From contig JAFDZO010000010.1 in the NCBI GenBank assembly GCA_018266845.1, positions 1 to 64,000 on the forward strand: DNA of 64,000 nt, in the 5' to 3' direction. The DNA comes from Bacteroidota bacterium (GTDB lineage Bacteria > Bacteroidota > Ignavibacteria > Tepidaquicellales > Tepidaquicellaceae). Below the pieces are notes generated by a model. It was not told the DNA's origin. It saw only the letters and a program-made list of their open reading frames with translations, and searched no databases. Below, piece after piece: positions 637 through 10,543 of this stretch. How positions within the stretch are numbered: the stretch's first letter is position 1; every line of letters starts with the position of its first letter. Made by a program: the position numbers and the translations under genes.

Positions 637-708
637 GCCCCCATAGGCTAATGGATAAACCTTCTGACTACGGATCAGATATTAGAGGTTCGAATCCTCT
701 TGGGGGTA
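637..708 (+). tRNA. tRNA-Arg (anticodon ACG)
   Basis: A full cloverleaf is visible. The acceptor stem is GCCCCCA (637-643) with TGGGGGT (701-707), giving a G1-U72 wobble pair. The anticodon stem TCTGA/TCAGA flanks the loop CTACGGA, so the anticodon is ACG at 670-672 (read as ICG after deamination, for CGN arginine codons). The T arm is AGAGG-TTCGAAT-CCTCT. The discriminator is A708 and a complete CCA is not encoded (it continues CA), so the end must be added by CCA transferase. It stands alone, with no other tRNA nearby. Confidence 0.95.
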
Positions 709-849
709 CAACTTTCCTTTCCTGCCTCAATTTTTCCCAAAAACAAATTCCATACCGAGATTTATAAAATAATTTTTTTCTTATGATGTAAATCATACAA
801 TAATTGCTGAAATGTATCTAATTTGTTATAGGTAAGTTAACCAATAGCC
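709..849 (+). promoter_or_regulatory. Intergenic region with FNR/CRP-like dyad at 782-797
   Basis: TATGAT-GTAA-ATCATA (782-797) is a perfect 6+6 dyad with a 4-base spacer. Its TGAT-N4-ATCA core has the geometry of CRP/FNR-superfamily sites (FNR consensus TTGAT-N4-ATCAA). It lies about 53 bp upstream of the small ORF at 850 and about 225 bp upstream of the 29-aa peptide gene, in the right place for activating a promoter. The rest of the stretch is plain AT-rich DNA. Site identity is inferred from pattern only. Confidence 0.45.
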
Positions 850-1002
850 ATGAATAAAAGCGTCATACATCACAAAGCGGATTCACTCTTTTTAGTAAAT
901 GATGTGAATTCGGATGACTCTGATGCGCCTGTCTCCTCACTTGATATCAGGGGAAATGTTTACTGGGTAAAATTGCTTTATAACAATACCAGCTCATTGT
1001 AA
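850..1002 (+). CDS. Possible small protein, 50 aa, unknown
   Basis: An ATG-started frame of 50 codons begins MNKSVIHHKADSLFL and ends in NNTSSL before TAA. I recognise no family. There is no visible Shine-Dalgarno sequence, but genes of this lineage often lack one. The composition is mixed and polar (DVNSDDSDAP in the middle), with no signal peptide or membrane segment. The frame lies between an FNR/CRP-like dyad and the well-marked 29-aa peptide gene that starts 18 bases after its stop, so it may be a coupled leader or the first gene of a two-gene unit. It could equally be a chance frame in the 5' leader. Confidence 0.3.
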   Translation: MNKSVIHHKADSLFLVNDVNSDDSDAPVSSLDIRGNVYWVKLLYNNTSSL

Positions 1003-1009
1003 ACTAATA

Positions 1010-1017
1010 AAGGAGGA
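1010..1017 (+). promoter_or_regulatory. Strong Shine-Dalgarno, AAGGAGGA
   Basis: AAGGAGGA lies 3 bases before the ATG at 1021. Such a perfect anti-16S match is unusual in this window, where most genes have poor or no Shine-Dalgarno. It is the best argument that the 29-codon frame behind it is translated. Confidence 0.7.
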
Positions 1018-1020
1018 TTT

Positions 1021-1110
1021 ATGAAAACCCTTCTTAAATTTTTTATTTTTGTTGTATTTCTAATTATAATTCTTTCGCCGGCTGGTTCACTCGGTGCCTG
1101 TAGTTTCTAA
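1021..1110 (+). CDS. 29-aa hydrophobic mini-peptide, membrane or lipopeptide
   Basis: This 29-codon gene starts MKTLLKFFIFVVF and ends SLGACSF before TAA. It is essentially one charged N-terminus (two Lys) and a hydrophobic helix of about 17 residues. The tail LGAC-SF resembles a lipobox (L-G-A-C), so signal peptidase II could leave a lipidated Cys-Ser-Phe; alternatively it is a single-span membrane micro-protein. It has a strong AAGGAGGA site and is followed 35 bases later by a good intrinsic terminator, so it looks like a genuine stand-alone or bicistronic unit. I recognise no family. Candidates by form alone are a type I toxin-like peptide, a small subunit of a membrane complex, or a signalling lipopeptide. 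Confidence 0.55.
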   Translation: MKTLLKFFIFVVFLIIILSPAGSLGACSF

Positions 1111-1145
1111 TATCCTGCAGGCAATGGAAGTATAGAAAGTATGAT

Positions 1146-1184
1146 AAGGTTACTGAAAAGTAGTTCAGTAGCCTTTTATTTTTT
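1146..1184 (+). terminator. Intrinsic terminator after mini-peptide gene
   Basis: AAGGTTACTGAA (1146-1157) pairs with TTCAGTAGCCTT (1164-1175) through one T-G wobble around a 6-base loop. The tract TTATTTTTT follows. This is a classical rho-independent terminator on the + strand, closing the unit of tiny ORFs and separating it from the DUF4783 gene at 1266. Confidence 0.85.
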
Positions 1185-1749: not shown

Positions 1750-4700
1750 ATGCTTAAAAAAATTCTCGGGATTAATACTGCTCTTAATAATAAATTTGGA
1801 AGGCGGTTAAAATTTTTAATTTTAATCGCTTTTTTACTTTTATTCTGGAATATTGTTTCAAACGTTACCTTCCAGACTATCCTTACTACAAACCGCCAGA
1901 ATAACTCTGTTTTCAAAGAGAAAAATGAAGAGAGAATAAACTACATTCAAACTCTATACACCAATATTTCTTCTGAAACAATTTCAGAGGCGAAAGAAAT
2001 CGCATCTGATAAAGAGATAAGAAAATATCTTCAGTCCGGTGAAAATAAAAAAGTATTTGATGAGTTTTTGAAAAAATTTCCGGGACAGCTGTATCAAATG
2101 GAAATTTATAACAGAAAACTTGAACTTGTCGCATTTGAAGGAAGAGAAATCCAGCCGAAAATTTTCAGCCTGCAAAAAGCTCTATCAGGAAAGTCTTTCT
2201 CGATTTTAAAAAATATTAGCTTCTATTCATATCTGGTTGTATATTTGCCTGTAAGAGATGCAGTTGATACAAACTCAATTATAGGGGTTTCGGTAACAGC
2301 CCGCCTGTTGGATACAAAATTTCAAATCAAGAACAAATTTATTTCTTATCTGGGGCTTTCCGGGGAGATTGAGAATAAATATAAAGTAGCTGCCTCTGTT
2401 ATTCCTTCTGATGAAGTGTCAGGAAACTTGCAAACGGATTCGTCTGCTTTCAAATCTTCCGTGTCATTAAATATCAAAGGGCTTGACGGCACAGCAATCG
2501 GGAAAATTTCTCTGCCCGAATACACCGCTGAAAACTATATTTCGGAAATAAATAATCTTATTGATAAAATTAACTCACTCACAATTTTTTTGCTCTCGGT
2601 TATAATTCTATCAGTAATTTTTACATTTGCGAATAAGTTAAAGTCAGTCTGGCTAAAGGGCGGCATATTTCTTCTTTTGCTTGTTTTGCTCAGACTTCTA
2701 TGGGTAAAAATAGGCTTCCCCTCCGTTCTCTTTGATACTGATTTATTTTCTCCTTCTTATTATGCCTCAACTTTTGGTAAGGGGATTGTAAGGTCAGCGG
2801 GCGATTTGCTTATCAGCTCTCTTCTTCTGCTTATCTGGTCATTTTATTTTTTCAAGATAATTTTTTTCCATTACAAAGAAAATATCAGCAGGCAGCAAAG
2901 TATTGGATATGCAGCTGCCAAATTTTCTGGACAGATTATCCTTTTTTTCGGCATTCTCTATTTGCTTGGCGTAGTCATTCAAAGTGTTGTTTCTGATTCT
3001 AATTTAAAATTTCTCGATAAGACAAATCTTATCCCGGATACAGGATTAATTTTTATTCTGGTTTCGATTTTCTTGTGCGGAATTTCAGCTTTCACTTTTC
3101 TGACGATCATCATTGTGAATGAGTTTTACTTCGCAGTAAAACAGGATTTAATAAAAAATAAATTTTTAAAAAAATATTTTTTTATTGCCTTATTTATTTT
3201 ATTTGCCGTGATTAGTCAGGTTGTTGAGCTTGCTTTTCCTGAGTTTCCCGTGAATTATTACCAGCGTCTTATAATTATTGCTTCGATTTTTTTATTCTCG
3301 TTTTTTCTCAGCAAAAATATTCTGCTGAAAAGGGAGTTCAGAATCTTTTCCTATGCAAATATTTCCCTGCTTGTTTTAATTAGCTTAATTTCTATTCCTT
3401 ACATTCTTCTGGATAAGCTTACCGCTCAGGAAACAAAATTCGTTGAGCTAATTGGCAGTAAGCTTTCTGAAGATGATAATGATAAAATTCTCTTTCTGAT
3501 TACAGGCGAACTGAATAAAATTGTTGAAAGCAAAGAAGTTGAAAATCTCCTTAAAAGCAAAGCTAACTCATCAAATCTTGCTTTTACAACGTGGGCGGAG
3601 AGCAAACTTAGCACTGAAAATCTCAACACCTCAATTATTTTACTGGATACGAACTTTAATTCAGTAAGCGATTTCAGTATTAACTACAATTCTCTGAACG
3701 TAGATTCGTTAATTTCGTTTGTAAAAAAATCGGTTAAAGGAGCGGGTATAAATCAAATGCAGCCGGCTCCTGATAGTTTGCAGTCTTCTGATAGCCTTGT
3801 CTCTGAAGAGCCGGAGTACGATGGAACTTCACTTGAAGAGTTTGTCAGAGCGTCGGAAGATGATTCATCAAAGATAAAAAATAAATTTTCTGTTTATAAA
3901 AATTCAGGGGACAAATATTATGCCGGAGTGGTAAAGCTGGAAAACCTTGATTTAAGAAATACTGAGTTTGCCAAGAAAACCGGATATGCTCTTGTAACAG
4001 TGCAGTATGAACCCAAAAATCTTCTTGCTCAATCATCTTTTCAGATTTTTAAAAACTATACTAAAGATAATCTTTTTGATAAGCTGATTTCTACACCTGT
4101 CATTACGGAGTACATTGATGATGAATTTGTAAGCTCAACAAATCCTGAAATTTCAAAAGGGAATACAAAATCTCTTGAGAGCTTTAAAGATTTTGTCAAA
4201 AGTAAACCCGTAAAATCTGCATGGAGATACGAAATATTTAACAATGAAAAATTCAGAACATTCTATGTGCTTACAAACACATCTGACGGCTATCAAAAAG
4301 TATATTCTATAAGTATCAAAAGAAATGATGCTTACCTTATATTGTTTTTCTACCTTAAGTTTGTTCTGTTTATTGTTATGATATTCGGCCTTATCAGTGT
4401 ATTGTATTTTTTATATTACGTCGTATCTCAAAACAGGATTGTGTTTAATTTCCGTGAAAAGCTGCTGACATCGTTTATAATCGTTTCAGTCATTCCTATT
4501 ATTTTACTGGCAATTTACACCAGAGGATATATTAAGAATAAATATGATAGCTCATTTGAAAACCAGATTAAGTCAGATTTAAACCTTGTAGCTGAAAGCT
4601 TTAGAAACAGTAATACCGGATTTATAAGCGGCAAGTTGACTGACAGCCTGAAACAGAAAGAAAAATCAACCTTCAATAAGCCGTTGATACGCTCAGATAA

Positions 4701-5898
4701 AAACTTCAATATATATTCTGGATTGAAATTATCTTCCACAACAAATGAAGAGTTGTTTAAATCCGATTTATTGGATAACAGAGTTGACGGGGGAGCATAC
4801 TATAATTTGAACTACGAGAAAAAAGATGTTTACTTTAAATATTTAGACCTGCCGGGCTTTTCATTTTATGCAGGATATATTCCCATACTAGATAAAAGCA
4901 ACAATCTTAGCGCGATTATTTCCTCTCAAACCGTTTACAGGCAGGCTGAGATAAGTGAAGAGTTGACAGAGTCGCTAACGTTTATTTTCGGAATCTATAT
5001 AATAGTTATAATTATTCTTTTGCTGTTTATTACTTTTTTTGTAGAGAGAATAACCAGACCTATTTCCATACTAAAAATCGCAACGGAAAGGCTTTCAAGA
5101 GGGGAGAGCAATATAGAAATTCCGCTGAAAAGGAAAGATGAGTTTGGGACATTAGTAGAATCGTTTAACAGAATGACGCGCGAGCTTGAGGCTTCTAAAG
5201 AAAAACTGAAGAGAGCGGAAAGAGAAGCTGCTTGGAGGGATATTGCAAGGCGGGTTGCGCATGAAATAAAAAATCCTCTTACTCCTATGAAACTTTCTGT
5301 CCAGCATCTCTATGATTTGTATTTAAGAAAAAAAGATAGCGGCGATTTTGAAAACACCCTGACTAAGACAAAGGATATAATGCTGAACGAGATTGACAAG
5401 CTGAACAAAATTGCAACTGAATTTTCTAATTTTGCTAAATTGCCTCAGCGAAATTATGAATTGATAGAGCCGAATGAAATAATGCGCGACGTGATAATGC
5501 TTTATGAAAAATTCCCTGATATTTCATTTGAAATTGATTTAAAAGAAAATTTAGGCACAATCACTGCTGATAAACAGGAGCTGAACAGAATTTTTCAAAA
5601 TCTGATAAAAAATGCGCTGCAGGCGATTGATGGAGAAGGAAGCATAAGAATTTCTTCGGATGAAGATAGAGGATATGTGATTTTTATTATTCAGGATAAT
5701 GGCGAAGGGATGGATGGAGAGACTTTAAAAAAATTGTTTGAACCGAATTTTTCAACAAAGTCTGCCGGTATGGGGCTTGGGCTTTCCATTACGAAAAAAT
5801 CTTTAGATAATATGAATGCAGTAATTACTTATGAAAGCGCTAAAGGAAAAGGCACAAAGGTTACGCTAAAATTTTCTAAAAAATTTTACGGAAAATAA
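1750..5898 (+). CDS. NtrY-like membrane sensor histidine kinase, giant form
   Basis: A 1382-aa histidine kinase, about twice the length of typical NtrY. The C-terminal core is clear: a HAMP linker (about 1090-1155), an H-box with His1171 in RRVAHEIKNPLTPMKL, an N-box near 1279 (NLIKNALQAI), a G1 box near 1316 (DNGEGM) and G2 GMGLGLS. HEIKNPLTP is the NtrY-type H-box. N-terminal to it are about ten to twelve membrane helices that split the protein into three extracytoplasmic segments (roughly 40-275, 555-860 and 925-1085) plus a central multi-helix block (about 276-550). It autophosphorylates on His and should pass phosphate to a response regulator, but none is encoded nearby. It is 13 bases after the DUF4783 gene and abuts the lipoprotein gene at 5899. 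Confidence 0.9.
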   Translation: MLKKILGINTALNNKFGRRLKFLILIAFLLLFWNIVSNVTFQTILTTNRQNNSVFKEKNEERINYIQTLYTNISSETISEAKEIASDKEIRKYLQSGENKKVFDEFLKKFPGQLYQMEIYNRKLELVAFEGREIQPKIFSLQKALSGKSFSILKNISFYSYLVVYLPVRDAVDTNSIIGVSVTARLLDTKFQIKNKFISYLGLSGEIENKYKVAASVIPSDEVSGNLQTDSSAFKSSVSLNIKGLDGTAIGKISLPEYTAENYISEINNLIDKINSLTIFLLSVIILSVIFTFANKLKSVWLKGGIFLLLLVLLRLLWVKIGFPSVLFDTDLFSPSYYASTFGKGIVRSAGDLLISSLLLLIWSFYFFKIIFFHYKENISRQQSIGYAAAKFSGQIILFFGILYLLGVVIQSVVSDSNLKFLDKTNLIPDTGLIFILVSIFLCGISAFTFLTIIIVNEFYFAVKQDLIKNKFLKKYFFIALFILFAVISQVVELAFPEFPVNYYQRLIIIASIFLFSFFLSKNILLKREFRIFSYANISLLVLISLISIPYILLDKLTAQETKFVELIGSKLSEDDNDKILFLITGELNKIVESKEVENLLKSKANSSNLAFTTWAESKLSTENLNTSIILLDTNFNSVSDFSINYNSLNVDSLISFVKKSVKGAGINQMQPAPDSLQSSDSLVSEEPEYDGTSLEEFVRASEDDSSKIKNKFSVYKNSGDKYYAGVVKLENLDLRNTEFAKKTGYALVTVQYEPKNLLAQSSFQIFKNYTKDNLFDKLISTPVITEYIDDEFVSSTNPEISKGNTKSLESFKDFVKSKPVKSAWRYEIFNNEKFRTFYVLTNTSDGYQKVYSISIKRNDAYLILFFYLKFVLFIVMIFGLISVLYFLYYVVSQNRIVFNFREKLLTSFIIVSVIPIILLAIYTRGYIKNKYDSSFENQIKSDLNLVAESFRNSNTGFISGKLTDSLKQKEKSTFNKPLIRSDKNFNIYSGLKLSSTTNEELFKSDLLDNRVDGGAYYNLNYEKKDVYFKYLDLPGFSFYAGYIPILDKSNNLSAIISSQTVYRQAEISEELTESLTFIFGIYIIVIIILLLFITFFVERITRPISILKIATERLSRGESNIEIPLKRKDEFGTLVESFNRMTRELEASKEKLKRAEREAAWRDIARRVAHEIKNPLTPMKLSVQHLYDLYLRKKDSGDFENTLTKTKDIMLNEIDKLNKIATEFSNFAKLPQRNYELIEPNEIMRDVIMLYEKFPDISFEIDLKENLGTITADKQELNRIFQNLIKNALQAIDGEGSIRISSDEDRGYVIFIIQDNGEGMDGETLKKLFEPNFSTKSAGMGLGLSITKKSLDNMNAVITYESAKGKGTKVTLKFSKKFYGK

Positions 5899-7302
5899 TT
5901 GAAATCTCATAAACTCATATTGATAAAATTCTTACTGCTCATCGCAGGCGCAATTTTTTTCTCATCCTGCGCAAACCAGCAGCCGCCTTCCGGCGGAGAG
6001 GATGATAAAACTCCACCTAAGATTATAAAAGTAAATCCTGAAAGTAACACAATAAAATTTACAGGTAACTCGATAAAGTTTTACTTTGATGAATATGTGA
6101 ATAGGAGAAGTTTTGAAGATGCTTTTAAAATCTCGCCATTGCCTGAGGGACGTAAGAAGTTTGACTGGGGAGCAAAAGATGTTGAAGTAATTTTTGAAAA
6201 CGGATTTGAAAAGAATAAAACTTATTCAATAGTAATTACGAAGGACTTACGGGATGTTAACGGAGGAAACCAGCTTACTTCTCCTATGAATTTTGCATTC
6301 TCTACGGGTGATAAAATTGACAAGGGAGGTGTAGCCGGGAAAATTTTCTCGGATAATCTTGAAAAGATGATTGTTTCCTGTTATAAAGTTACAAGCCTGA
6401 ACGGGAATTTTGTTAAGCCTGACACCATTAAGCCTGATTTTATTACTCAGCCTGATGAAAAAGGAAACTATGCTTTTTCAAATCTTCCCGAAGGAAAATT
6501 TCGTTTGTTTGCTTTTAATGATGATGATAGAAATTTTTTATACAATAAATCGGACGGGAAAATTGCTCTGCTGTCTTCCGATATAGAGATTTTGGATTCT
6601 ACGAAGCTAAGCGGAAAAAATTTTCTATTTAAAAATTTTAATTTTGATGTAAAAAGCAAAGAGTTTATTCAGTCACTAAAGTCTGACTCGCTTAATCTTG
6701 TTTTTGCTTCTTTCCACAATGGTTCAAACTCAATACGGGATAATGAGCGTTTTTATTTTTATTTTAGGAATACAAATTTAAGCAAGTATGAGCTTGCTGA
6801 TAACCTGAAACTCACGGATTCTGCATCAAACACAAACGTAAAAATTGCCTTTAACTGGATAAACGATTCATTGCTGCAGGTTTTTTCACCGGAGAAATTA
6901 AAGCAGAACAGAACTTACAAATTTTCCGTGCTTAAACTGCCGTTAAATTTTGTAAGATTTTTTAAGACAATTTCAGAAAGCAAAACAGGAACAGTTTCCG
7001 GCTCGGTGATTGTAAGCGACTCTGCCATAAATTCCGGGGTAAATATTGTCATTCAATTAATAGAGAAAAATAATTTTTCAAACAAGTTTACTCAAAGCCT
7101 TACTAACGCAGGAGCATATAAATTTGAAAATATTCCCGAGGGGGATTACATTTTATTTTCATTTATTGATTATAACAGAAATGGAGTTTATGATGCAGGT
7201 GCTTATTTCCCATTTGAGCCTTCAGAGCCTTTTTTCTTATATGAGAAAGATTTGAAAGTAAAAGGAATGTGGAATACCGATAATGCACAGATTATTTTTT
7301 AA
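5899..7302 (+). CDS. Lipoprotein with N-terminal bacterial Ig-like domain
   Basis: A 467-aa predicted lipoprotein starting at TTG directly after the kinase stop, with no spacing; there is no ATG that keeps the signal peptide. The lipobox is FSSC with Cys24. Residues about 37-135 match the SbsA/Big_5 Ig-like fold (TPPKI.KVNPES, IKFYFDEYV, ending NFAFSTGD). The C-terminal 100 residues have a prealbumin-like carboxypeptidase-regulatory look and a calcium-loop-like DYNRNGVYD. Ig-like lipoproteins of this type are common and uncharacterised in Bacteroidota. Likely anchored in the outer membrane and translated with the kinase. Its 3' end overlaps the convergent holB gene by 4 bases. Confidence 0.75.
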   Translation: MKSHKLILIKFLLLIAGAIFFSSCANQQPPSGGEDDKTPPKIIKVNPESNTIKFTGNSIKFYFDEYVNRRSFEDAFKISPLPEGRKKFDWGAKDVEVIFENGFEKNKTYSIVITKDLRDVNGGNQLTSPMNFAFSTGDKIDKGGVAGKIFSDNLEKMIVSCYKVTSLNGNFVKPDTIKPDFITQPDEKGNYAFSNLPEGKFRLFAFNDDDRNFLYNKSDGKIALLSSDIEILDSTKLSGKNFLFKNFNFDVKSKEFIQSLKSDSLNLVFASFHNGSNSIRDNERFYFYFRNTNLSKYELADNLKLTDSASNTNVKIAFNWINDSLLQVFSPEKLKQNRTYKFSVLKLPLNFVRFFKTISESKTGTVSGSVIVSDSAINSGVNIVIQLIEKNNFSNKFTQSLTNAGAYKFENIPEGDYILFSFIDYNRNGVYDAGAYFPFEPSEPFFLYEKDLKVKGMWNTDNAQIIF

Positions 7303-8432
7303 GTATTAGCTTCTCCCGCTAATATCATTTCCCTGATTTTTATAAATAGATTAAACAACATCAACTCTAAGTTCACATTGTAATCTACATCATTTATTGA
7401 GTTTTCCAGCATACTTATTATCCCGTAGTAATCTGCATTATATTTTAATGCGAATTTTGAGATACTATCGAGTTCATCCTTATTGATTATAAGGTTTTCA
7501 GCCCCGCTTCTTTTGTACTGAACATCGCGAAGCCATATCTGCATTAAAATTAAAAATTGACGCACTCTTTCCTTATCTTTTTTGCCGATAACAAAATCAA
7601 TATCAAATCCGGCTTTTACAGTATTCATAGTTACAAGATTTCTCAACAATACAAGAACTTTTTTCCTGAGTTCATCATAGCTTCCGCGCAATATGTTTTG
7701 CGCTTTTGTGATGCTTCCGTCAGCTAATTCGGAGTAAAAATTCAATTCTGCATCATTTATACCGGGCTGAATTTTTTTAATATAGCCGGTAAGTTCGGAT
7801 TTGCCGATACTGTCGAAATGAATTTTTTGGCATCGTCCTATAATCGTAGGCAGAAGGGAGTTCAGCTTTGAAGTCGTTAAAATCAAAAGAGAATTTTTGG
7901 GAGGCTCTTCAAGAATTTTCAGCAAAGCATTGGCGCTCTGCGGATTCATATTATCTGCATCGGAGATTAAAAAAACTTTTGTTCTGTTTTCGGTCCCTGT
8001 AAGATAAATTAAATCTTTGATTTCCCGTATTGAACTTATCCTGATGAAGTTTGCTTTCTCAAGCTGAATTTTATGATATGGATTTTTAGATTTCTCCTCA
8101 ATCTCGCTGAGATAGCTTTCATAATCGGATTTATCTAACGATTCCAAAACAGAGCTTTCATTGTCATCCTTTCCGGTAGGAAGGGCTGTGATAAATTTTA
8201 GCAAAAGCGACTTCAGACTTTGGATGTCTTTGCAGTTTTTGCACTCATCGCATGCTCCTTTTTCTATATCAGGGTTTTCGCAGTTGAGAAATTTAGCCGT
8301 CTCTATAGCAGCAGCATCTTTGCCTGTCCCTGGTTTTCCGTAAAAAATATAAGCATGAGAAATTCTGCCGCTGGAAAGAATGCTCTTTAAAATATTTTTT
8401 ACCCGTTCCTGTCCTATTATATTTGACCACAT
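7299..8432 (-). CDS. holB: DNA polymerase III delta' subunit
   Basis: A 377-aa AAA+ clamp-loader subunit. Seen: a Walker A-like loop GKPGTGKD (32-39); a zinc module from Cys51, Cys61, Cys64 and Cys67; ISDADNMNPQSANALLKILEEPP, the signature of the delta'/DnaX family; and GRCQ, the sensor-1 'SRC'-like motif. Delta' works with delta and tau/gamma to open the beta clamp and load it on DNA in the cytoplasm. It is convergent with the lipoprotein gene (4-base overlap). The Omp85-type gene lies just upstream on the same strand with a 4-base gap, so the two may share a transcript. Confidence 0.9.
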   Translation of the reverse strand: MWSNIIGQERVKNILKSILSSGRISHAYIFYGKPGTGKDAAAIETAKFLNCENPDIEKGACDECKNCKDIQSLKSLLLKFITALPTGKDDNESSVLESLDKSDYESYLSEIEEKSKNPYHKIQLEKANFIRISSIREIKDLIYLTGTENRTKVFLISDADNMNPQSANALLKILEEPPKNSLLILTTSKLNSLLPTIIGRCQKIHFDSIGKSELTGYIKKIQPGINDAELNFYSELADGSITKAQNILRGSYDELRKKVLVLLRNLVTMNTVKAGFDIDFVIGKKDKERVRQFLILMQIWLRDVQYKRSGAENLIINKDELDSISKFALKYNADYYGIISMLENSINDVDYNVNLELMLFNLFIKIREMILAGEANT

Positions 8433-8436
8433 AAAA

Positions 8437-10461
8437 TTAAAAAGTGTTTCCTATTCCGAATTGAATTACCATTTTTTCCCCGCTTTTAAAAATTGTGCCG
8501 ATATTATTATCGAATAGCCATCGCCTATCATCTACTCCCGGGTCAAACAGCTTAAAGCCTAAATCAAATCTGAAAGCGCCGACAATTGTGTAGTATCTTA
8601 TACCTGCGCCGATAGCCATCGCAATTTGATTAAATTGAAAATCTTTATAGCTATCCCAAATATTTCCATAATCGAAAAACGTTGCAAACCCAAGGTCTTT
8701 TATTAAAAGATTTTTTGATTTTGAAAACGGCTTTGTTCTGTGTTCAAAACTTCCGTCTATAATAAACCTTCCTCCTAATGAAGGACTTTCTACTGCTCCC
8801 AGTGTTCCTGCTCTCCATCCTCGCAAGCTGACGCTTCCTCCTATTGTGTAGTTCGCGTCTGTTGGAACAATATCACTTGAAATAGAAACATCACCAAGTT
8901 CAAATGTATTATCCCCGTATTCAAAAATATTTCCAACCACTAATTTTGTGCCGAATACGGAAGCACCTTTGTTCTCTTCCGACAAATTCCAGAAGAATTT
9001 ATTCTGAGTTGTAACTTTTAGATAGCTTGAAGTGCTTGTGTTAAAAATTTTTCGTACAAGAGTGCCAAGCAAACCTGCTTCTTCAAACGAATAGGAAGCA
9101 TAGGAGCCGTCTGTAGGGTACTGAAGATTATCAACATGATTATGAATTACAGATAATCCAATTGAAGATGTGAAATCATTATATACGGGATTCACTATAC
9201 TAAGCAAGGTGTCAAAAATAATTGTTCTTTCGTTAGCTATCTTCCAGTCTAAAATCAAATTGTTAAAATAGGTATAATTTTTGAGTTCATATTTTAAGCT
9301 TGCCAGATTCTTTACGCTAGTAAGTTGATAATCAAGTGAATCGTTATACAACTGCCTTTGGCTGGTAATCCCAAAGTTATCATTACCCGTAATTTTATCA
9401 TTATCAAAAAGATGAGGCTGGAACAAAGTAGTCAGTCCCTCATATCTGTAAAAATTAAAACTATGTATAAGGGCTTTTAAGCTGGCAGTAAAAACTCTCC
9501 CGCCGCCGAAAAAATATTTATTCGAAAAAGTCAGTCCGGCACCCGCGTAAAATCTGCCCCCAATATCATAGGCAAGAATTTCCGGCTTCAGCTCAAACTT
9601 GTTTGTTACTGCGGCATCAATTTTTAAATTAATTACACCTTCTAAGGAATCAATTTCATCAATTTGAATTCTTGCATTCTGGAAAATCGCAATTTTGGAA
9701 ATGCGGTTTTCGGAAGAGATGAGCTTTTCCTTTGAGTACAGCTCCCCCTCTTTGTATTCAAGCTCTCTTCTTATATCATCTGAATTTATTCCATAGCTGT
9801 TGTTGCTGATTGTTATATTTGTTCTTCCAAAGTTAAACCTGCTGCGGGGAGTAAAATTCAGAACAATATCAACCCGGTTTGCCAAAGCGGAATCTTTAGA
9901 GACAAACTTAACTATATCCGGCACATCTGCTTGAGCCAGCGCATAACCGTTATTCAAAAGAATACCTAACACTCTGGTGATTTCAAGCTGTACTTCAGCC
10001 TTGTTATAATTTCTGTTATTTTTTAGAAAGTTGTCATTAGAAACCAGTGAGTAGGTCTGTTCGTTTATATCTTCCAGACCGTTGTAAAAGACTTTGTTTA
10101 TTTTGTATCTCGTATTTTCATTAATAATAAATGTCGCAATTATCATACTGCTGTCACTTCCAATGGCAGTTGATGTATCAACAAAGGCATCAAGAAATCC
10201 ATTATCAAAATAGTATTTCTGTATCCTTTTAGAATCAGTATAGAATTCTGATCTTAAAAAGTTGTCGCTTTTAGTTGTGTTTATTATTCCTTCCAGAGTG
10301 GATTCGTCGAAGTCCTGTTTATTGTCCGCAAATTTGAATCTGACTTCGTCTAATTTTAGAATTGTAGATTTTCTTTCCGTGTCATCATTGTTATCCTGCG
10401 CAAAAATAGAAGCGAAGGAAAGGAACACAAATATAGCACAAAAATATTTTAATAAACTCAT
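8437..10461 (-). CDS. Omp85-family outer membrane protein (BamA/TamA type)
   Basis: A 674-aa protein with a signal peptide (MSLLKYFCAIFVF.., cleavage after ASIFAQ). Roughly three POTRA-like units occupy about residues 30-300 (for example RYKINKVFYNGL and RFNFGRTNITI), followed by a C-terminal beta-barrel that ends in Phe (FGIGNTF). The barrel holds LRGW, the loop-6 [VIL]RG[FYW] motif of Omp85 proteins. BamA usually has five POTRA domains, so this shorter protein may be a TamA-like or accessory assembly factor. A longer frame reaches 10623 but would run over the terminator at 10507-10543 and into the neighbouring gene, so I start at the ATG at 10461. Confidence 0.8.
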   Translation of the reverse strand: MSLLKYFCAIFVFLSFASIFAQDNNDDTERKSTILKLDEVRFKFADNKQDFDESTLEGIINTTKSDNFLRSEFYTDSKRIQKYYFDNGFLDAFVDTSTAIGSDSSMIIATFIINENTRYKINKVFYNGLEDINEQTYSLVSNDNFLKNNRNYNKAEVQLEITRVLGILLNNGYALAQADVPDIVKFVSKDSALANRVDIVLNFTPRSRFNFGRTNITISNNSYGINSDDIRRELEYKEGELYSKEKLISSENRISKIAIFQNARIQIDEIDSLEGVINLKIDAAVTNKFELKPEILAYDIGGRFYAGAGLTFSNKYFFGGGRVFTASLKALIHSFNFYRYEGLTTLFQPHLFDNDKITGNDNFGITSQRQLYNDSLDYQLTSVKNLASLKYELKNYTYFNNLILDWKIANERTIIFDTLLSIVNPVYNDFTSSIGLSVIHNHVDNLQYPTDGSYASYSFEEAGLLGTLVRKIFNTSTSSYLKVTTQNKFFWNLSEENKGASVFGTKLVVGNIFEYGDNTFELGDVSISSDIVPTDANYTIGGSVSLRGWRAGTLGAVESPSLGGRFIIDGSFEHRTKPFSKSKNLLIKDLGFATFFDYGNIWDSYKDFQFNQIAMAIGAGIRYYTIVGAFRFDLGFKLFDPGVDDRRWLFDNNIGTIFKSGEKMVIQFGIGNTF

Positions 10462-10506
10462 CCGCAGTAAAAATTGAGATAGTGGAAAACTAATAACTAT
10501 TGATAA

Positions 10507-10543
10507 CAAAAAAAGCCCAATAATAGAAACATTATTGGGCTTT
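10507..10543 (-). terminator. Intrinsic terminator for the DUF2795-like gene
   Basis: AAAGCCCAATAAT (10512-10524) pairs perfectly over 13 bp with ATTATTGGGCTTT (10531-10543) around a 6-base loop. On the minus strand the hairpin is followed by a run of T (complement of 10508-10514). It ends the small acidic-protein transcript and implies that the Omp85 gene downstream has its own promoter in 10462-10506 or depends on read-through. Confidence 0.9.

What the first reader, a model, noticed from the sequence alone, without database searches (positions are those of the whole stretch)
782..1184. Compact unit: FNR/CRP-like dyad, two tiny ORFs, perfect RBS and terminator around a 29-aa peptide
The sequence shows a TATGAT-N4-ATCATA dyad, a 50-codon frame, AAGGAGGA, a 29-codon hydrophobic frame ending LGACSF, and an intrinsic terminator. 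Genes this short are usually missed. The ending looks like a lipobox followed by only Ser-Phe, so the product might be a lipidated tripeptide, a membrane micro-protein or a toxin-like peptide. The dyad spacing matches CRP/FNR-family sites, hinting at redox or NO control.
Basis: partly seen in the sequence, partly recalled or inferred. Interest (0 to 1): 0.62.

Follow-up and report, generated by a model that had tools for sequence, protein, structure and literature searches.

The report
Signal-peptide stub behind FNR-type promoter
The supposed 29-amino-acid micro-gene is most likely the leftover secretion signal of a larger iron-protein-like gene whose body is missing here, but the oxygen-type control site and a conserved 50-amino-acid gene of unknown function just upstream look real.

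Summary
A dyad (782-797), a 50-codon frame (850-1002), a strong RBS with a 29-codon frame (1021-1110) and a terminator (1146-1175) are all there. The single same-genus genome held (G001) explains them. There the 29-codon frame is the signal peptide of a 164-aa secreted protein that matches DUF2202 (ferritin-like). In the window's genome the protein body is missing, and no DUF2202 gene is found anywhere in that genome. The "lipobox" Cys is Lys in G001, and codon-position changes give no evidence of selection on the stub. So the lipidated tripeptide / micro-toxin reading is not supported. The 50-codon ORF is different. It keeps exactly 50 codons in G001, with dN/dS about 0.1, and was found in no other genome searched, so it is probably a genus-restricted small gene of unknown function. 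The dyad is the best-supported part. The exact 4-bp spacing is strongly preferred in related genomes. Sites lie upstream of micro-oxic and anaerobic genes. A TAnnTTTG-type promoter box recurs at the distance that places the dyad at -41.5, and the window shares this geometry. Overall: a real FNR-type transcription unit, decayed at its second gene. Interest is low.

The parts
637..709 (+). tRNA-Arg (ACG); neighbour, not part of the unit
   Evidence: ARAGORN and Rfam; in G001 the same tRNA is about 6 kb away, so the adjacency is not conserved
782..797 (.). FNR/CRP-type operator dyad TATGAT-GTAA-ATCATA
   Evidence: Identical in G001; N4 spacing enriched about 7-fold over other spacings in 8 genomes; intergenic, upstream of ccoI-like, sulfhydrogenase and PFOR genes in this and related genomes
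819..826 (+). Putative -7 promoter box TAATTTGT; predicted transcription start near 831, which puts the dyad at -41.5
   Evidence: TTTG boxes cluster at this distance from other dyads; box position -12 to -5 taken from PMC9723704; the start itself is inferred
850..1002 (+). 50-aa small protein gene, genus-restricted, function unknown
   Evidence: Same length, 78% aa identity in G001, dN/dS about 0.1, 22 of 35 differences at third positions, P = 3e-4; no other relative found
1010..1017 (+). Ribosome-binding site AAGGAGGA of the stub
   Evidence: Sequence; the equivalent CGGAGG lies ahead of the 164-aa gene in G001
1021..1110 (+). 29-aa frame: signal-peptide remnant of a truncated secreted DUF2202/ferritin-like gene
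   Evidence: 14 of 26 residues identical to the signal peptide of the 164-aa G001 protein P0001 at the same place in the operon; P0001 matches PF09968; no DUF2202 in this genome
1146..1175 (+). Intrinsic terminator stem-loop
   Evidence: 12-bp stem plus T-run, z -5.3; homologous terminator with different stem bases in G001

Best explanation
This is a small FNR-type transcription unit. An FNR-family regulator bound at 782-797, centred at about -41.5, activates a TAnnTTTG-type promoter under low oxygen. The transcript carries a genus-specific 50-aa protein gene and then what used to be a secreted ferritin-like (DUF2202) protein gene, and ends at the 1146-1175 terminator. In this genome the second gene has lost its whole body. 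Only its RBS and signal-peptide start remain, and a chance stop after LGACSF creates the 29-aa frame. Shown by comparison: homology of the unit, body missing here, conservation of the 50-aa gene, dyad enrichment and geometry. Inferred: FNR as the binder, activation rather than repression, the direction of change (loss here, not gain in G001), and that any stub peptide made has no function.
For: G001 carries the same dyad, 50-aa ORF, RBS and terminator, and a 164-aa ORF in place of the 29-aa frame. P0001 matches DUF2202 at 25.5 bits against a cut-off of 22. G000 has no DUF2202 match, while 24 of 44 genomes searched do, and the only P0001 match in G000 is the stub itself. ORF50 has dN/dS about 0.1 and a third-position excess, P = 3e-4. 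Dyad: 52 of 156 half-site pairs with spacers 0-14 have N4; 29 of 35 inspected sites are intergenic. TTTG at +33 from the dyad centre occurs in 8 of 27 sites against about 0.3 per position on average. An FNR-like regulator (best hits Fnr and FnrL, E 2e-32, below those models' cut-offs) lies next to a dyad-preceded ccoI-like gene in G000.
Against: Only one sister genome is held, so loss here versus gain of the body in G001 rests on parsimony. After the stop, the 48 nt up to the terminator show no significant similarity to the G001 gene body, so the deletion ends are not resolved. The window box is one base different from the G001 TAAGTTTG. The P0001 match to DUF2202 is partial (profile positions 9-61 of 162). 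Some of the 27 dyad sites are orthologues of each other, so they are not independent.
Confidence: 0.8

Rival explanations
1. The 29-aa frame is a functional membrane micro-protein or lipopeptide that has kept its own RBS and terminator.
For: The RBS is strong and close to the start codon and the frame is open and hydrophobic; it could still be translated.
Against: In G001 the same start belongs to a 164-aa protein. The LGAC Cys is Lys in G001. Differences fall 12/6/15 over codon positions, P = 0.10 for a third-position excess, and the stretch is about twice as diverged as the neighbouring genes.
Confidence: 0.1
2. The missing body is an assembly or binning error in this genome, and the organism carries an intact gene.
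For: The genome is in 46 contigs and the unit lies about 1 kb from a contig end.
Against: The terminator and downstream genes follow collinearly with about 80% identity to G001, the removal leaves unrelated sequence rather than a clean join, and no other contig holds a DUF2202 gene.
Confidence: 0.07
3. The 50-codon ORF is a regulatory leader (uORF or RNA structure) for the downstream gene rather than a protein gene in its own right.
For: A 32-nt block at its start is identical in both species, and a stem can form there.
Against: Folding is not clearly better than shuffles (z -1.6 and -0.5), changes concentrate at third positions along the ORF, and the ORF is kept here although the downstream gene has lost its body.
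Confidence: 0.15

Closest known systems
DUF2202 (PF09968), ferritin-like; solved relative MJ0754 (3q4n)
   Same: The G001 counterpart of the stub matches it over the first part of the profile, with a weak sequence match to MJ0754 (E 0.015)
   Different: The window keeps only the signal peptide and none of the domain
FNR/FixK-type operators (TTGAT-N4-ATCAA) at class II promoters
   Same: Dyad with N4 spacing, centred at about -41.5 from the predicted start, targets of micro-oxic and anaerobic type
   Different: Half-site is ATGAT rather than TTGAT, and the promoter box is of the TAnnTTTG type described in flavobacteria (PMC9723704)

Membership tests
Bacterial lipoprotein (lipobox) | Conserved Cys at the end of the signal peptide | tested here: not met
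   Cys 27 of the 29-aa frame is Lys in the G001 protein
Conserved small-protein gene: 29-aa ORF | Frame length and reading frame conserved, with mostly synonymous change | tested here: not met
   Length not conserved (164 aa in G001); differences 12/6/15, P = 0.10
Conserved small-protein gene: 50-aa ORF | Frame length conserved, with mostly synonymous change | tested here: met
   50 aa in both, dN/dS about 0.1, P = 3e-4; only two species
DUF2202 protein | DUF2202 domain present in the window gene | tested here: not met
   No PF09968 match in G000; the stub has no domain
FNR-regulated promoter | Dyad with fixed 4-bp spacing | tested here: met
   N4 enriched about 7-fold over other spacings
FNR-regulated promoter | Fixed distance to the promoter (-41.5) | tested here: met
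   TTTG at +33 in 8 of 27 other sites; +33 in G001, +32 in the window
FNR-regulated promoter | Binding by an oxygen-sensing FNR and low-oxygen induction | not testable with these tools
   An FNR-like regulator is encoded in G000; binding and induction need experiment

The most novel reading that the evidence does not exclude
After losing the DUF2202 body, the stub has been kept as a new FNR-controlled membrane micro-protein that works with the genus-specific 50-aa protein: a new small-protein pair born from gene decay.
Probability: 0.06. Interest if true: 0.6.

Novelty: new member of a known kind. Interest (0 to 1): 0.2.

Why it matters
It shows how a well-formed RBS and a hydrophobic short frame can be the remains of a truncated secreted protein rather than a micro-gene, which is a trap for small-ORF annotation. 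The useful positive results are a predicted FNR-type operator and promoter layout usable across this bacterial group, and one new taxon-restricted small protein gene that low oxygen is predicted to switch on.

Tried and rejected
Searching 84,980 species genomes and the viral contigs with the 50-aa pair gave no relatives. Pfam and NCBIfam gave nothing for the 50-aa ORF. A single-sequence fold of it was low-confidence (pLDDT 60, pTM 0.27) and was not used. RNA structure inside the 50-aa ORF was not supported. I looked for the 50-aa ORF or the dyad upstream of other DUF2202 genes and found no such association. Residual homology after the stub's stop codon was not significant. Paper searches found nothing on DUF2202, on MJ0754, or on FNR sites in Ignavibacterium. 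The organism's taxonomy was not tested; genomes were compared by the tool's kinship labels.

Full report
Observation. A tRNA-Arg lies just upstream at 637-709.

Sister species. The genome search returned one other genome of the same genus, G001. It carries the whole unit. The dyad lies in a block of identical sequence. The 50-aa ORF is again exactly 50 codons. Next comes an RBS (CGGAGG) and a start that aligns with the start of the 29-aa frame, but the frame runs on to 164 aa. A terminator in the equivalent place has different stem bases but a similarly strong fold. The genes downstream (DUF4783, then the sensor kinase) follow in both.

The 29-aa frame. The 164-aa G001 protein matches DUF2202, PF09968, above its cut-off over part of the profile, and weakly matches the solved protein MJ0754. 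The first 26 residues align with the 29-aa frame with 14 identities and read as a signal peptide. The window's genome has no DUF2202 gene, while 24 of 44 genomes searched have one, and its only match to the G001 protein is the 29-aa stub itself. The Cys of the supposed lipobox is Lys in G001. Nucleotide differences over these 26 codons fall 12/6/15 on the three codon positions, which is not a significant third-position excess (P = 0.10). Over a comparable length, the signal peptide of the neighbouring DUF4783 gene has 16 differences in 75 nt against 33 in 78 here. The stretch between the stop and the terminator shows no significant similarity to the G001 gene body. The best reading is a truncated gene of which only the signal peptide remains. 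Loss here rather than gain in G001 is inferred from parsimony, since DUF2202 genes are common in the relatives.

The 50-aa ORF. It shows 35 differences, 22 of them at third positions (P = 3e-4), and dN/dS of 0.09-0.13. It has no Pfam or NCBIfam match and no relative in 84,980 species genomes or in the viral contigs. In the relatives searched, only G001 gave a convincing match. It is probably a real, genus-restricted small gene. Two species are too few to say more about its function, and a single-sequence structure prediction was uninformative.

The dyad. Across 44 genomes the pattern TATGAT-N4-ATCATA occurs far more often than its reversed control, which is not a perfect control because the reversed half-site contains TAG. 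In eight genomes, spacers of 0-14 bp gave 156 sites, 52 of them with N4, so N4 is about sevenfold over the mean of the other spacings. Of 35 N4 sites inspected, 29 are intergenic. In this genome they precede a ccoI-like metal ATPase followed by further cco-type genes, next to an FNR-like regulator, and a sulfhydrogenase subunit; in relatives they precede PFOR and a CcmF-type locus, among others. A TTTG promoter element sits exactly 33 bp from the dyad centre in 8 of 27 sites, and at 55-56 bp in 7, against a mean of about 0.3 per position. Since the flavobacterial TAnnTTTG box lies at -12 to -5 (PMC9723704), 33 bp corresponds to a dyad centred at -41.5, the class II position known from E. coli FNR (own knowledge). 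G001 has this layout exactly. In the window the box is TAATTTGT, one base shorter between TA and TTTG, matching the TAnnTTGY variant described in the same paper. Which protein binds, and whether oxygen or NO is the signal, was not testable.

Verdict. The finding is a decayed two-gene unit behind an FNR-type promoter, plus one orphan small gene. Interest is low.

Noticed in passing
L084 (G001) 4928-10527, against window 709-782: In G001 a metal-efflux RND operon (adaptor 419 aa, pump 1447 aa) lies between the tRNA-Arg and the dyad. The window lacks it and the whole genome has only distant matches to the adaptor (30% identity or less).
   Followed up: partly
L144, L148, L204, L208, L213 and similar: In several related loci the N4 dyad lies about 22 bp further upstream than usual, and a second, weaker FNR-like dyad sits near the -41.5 position, suggesting tandem sites.
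   Followed up: no
window 1790-1834, start of the sensor kinase gene: A terminator-like hairpin inside the first codons of the 1382-aa kinase gene is identical in G001 over about 45 nt, while the surrounding region is about 80% identical.
   Followed up: no
L199 and L200 (G029): Two nearly identical 478-479 aa proteins about 2 kb apart, each with the same dyad about 64 bp upstream, look like a tandem duplication.
   Followed up: no
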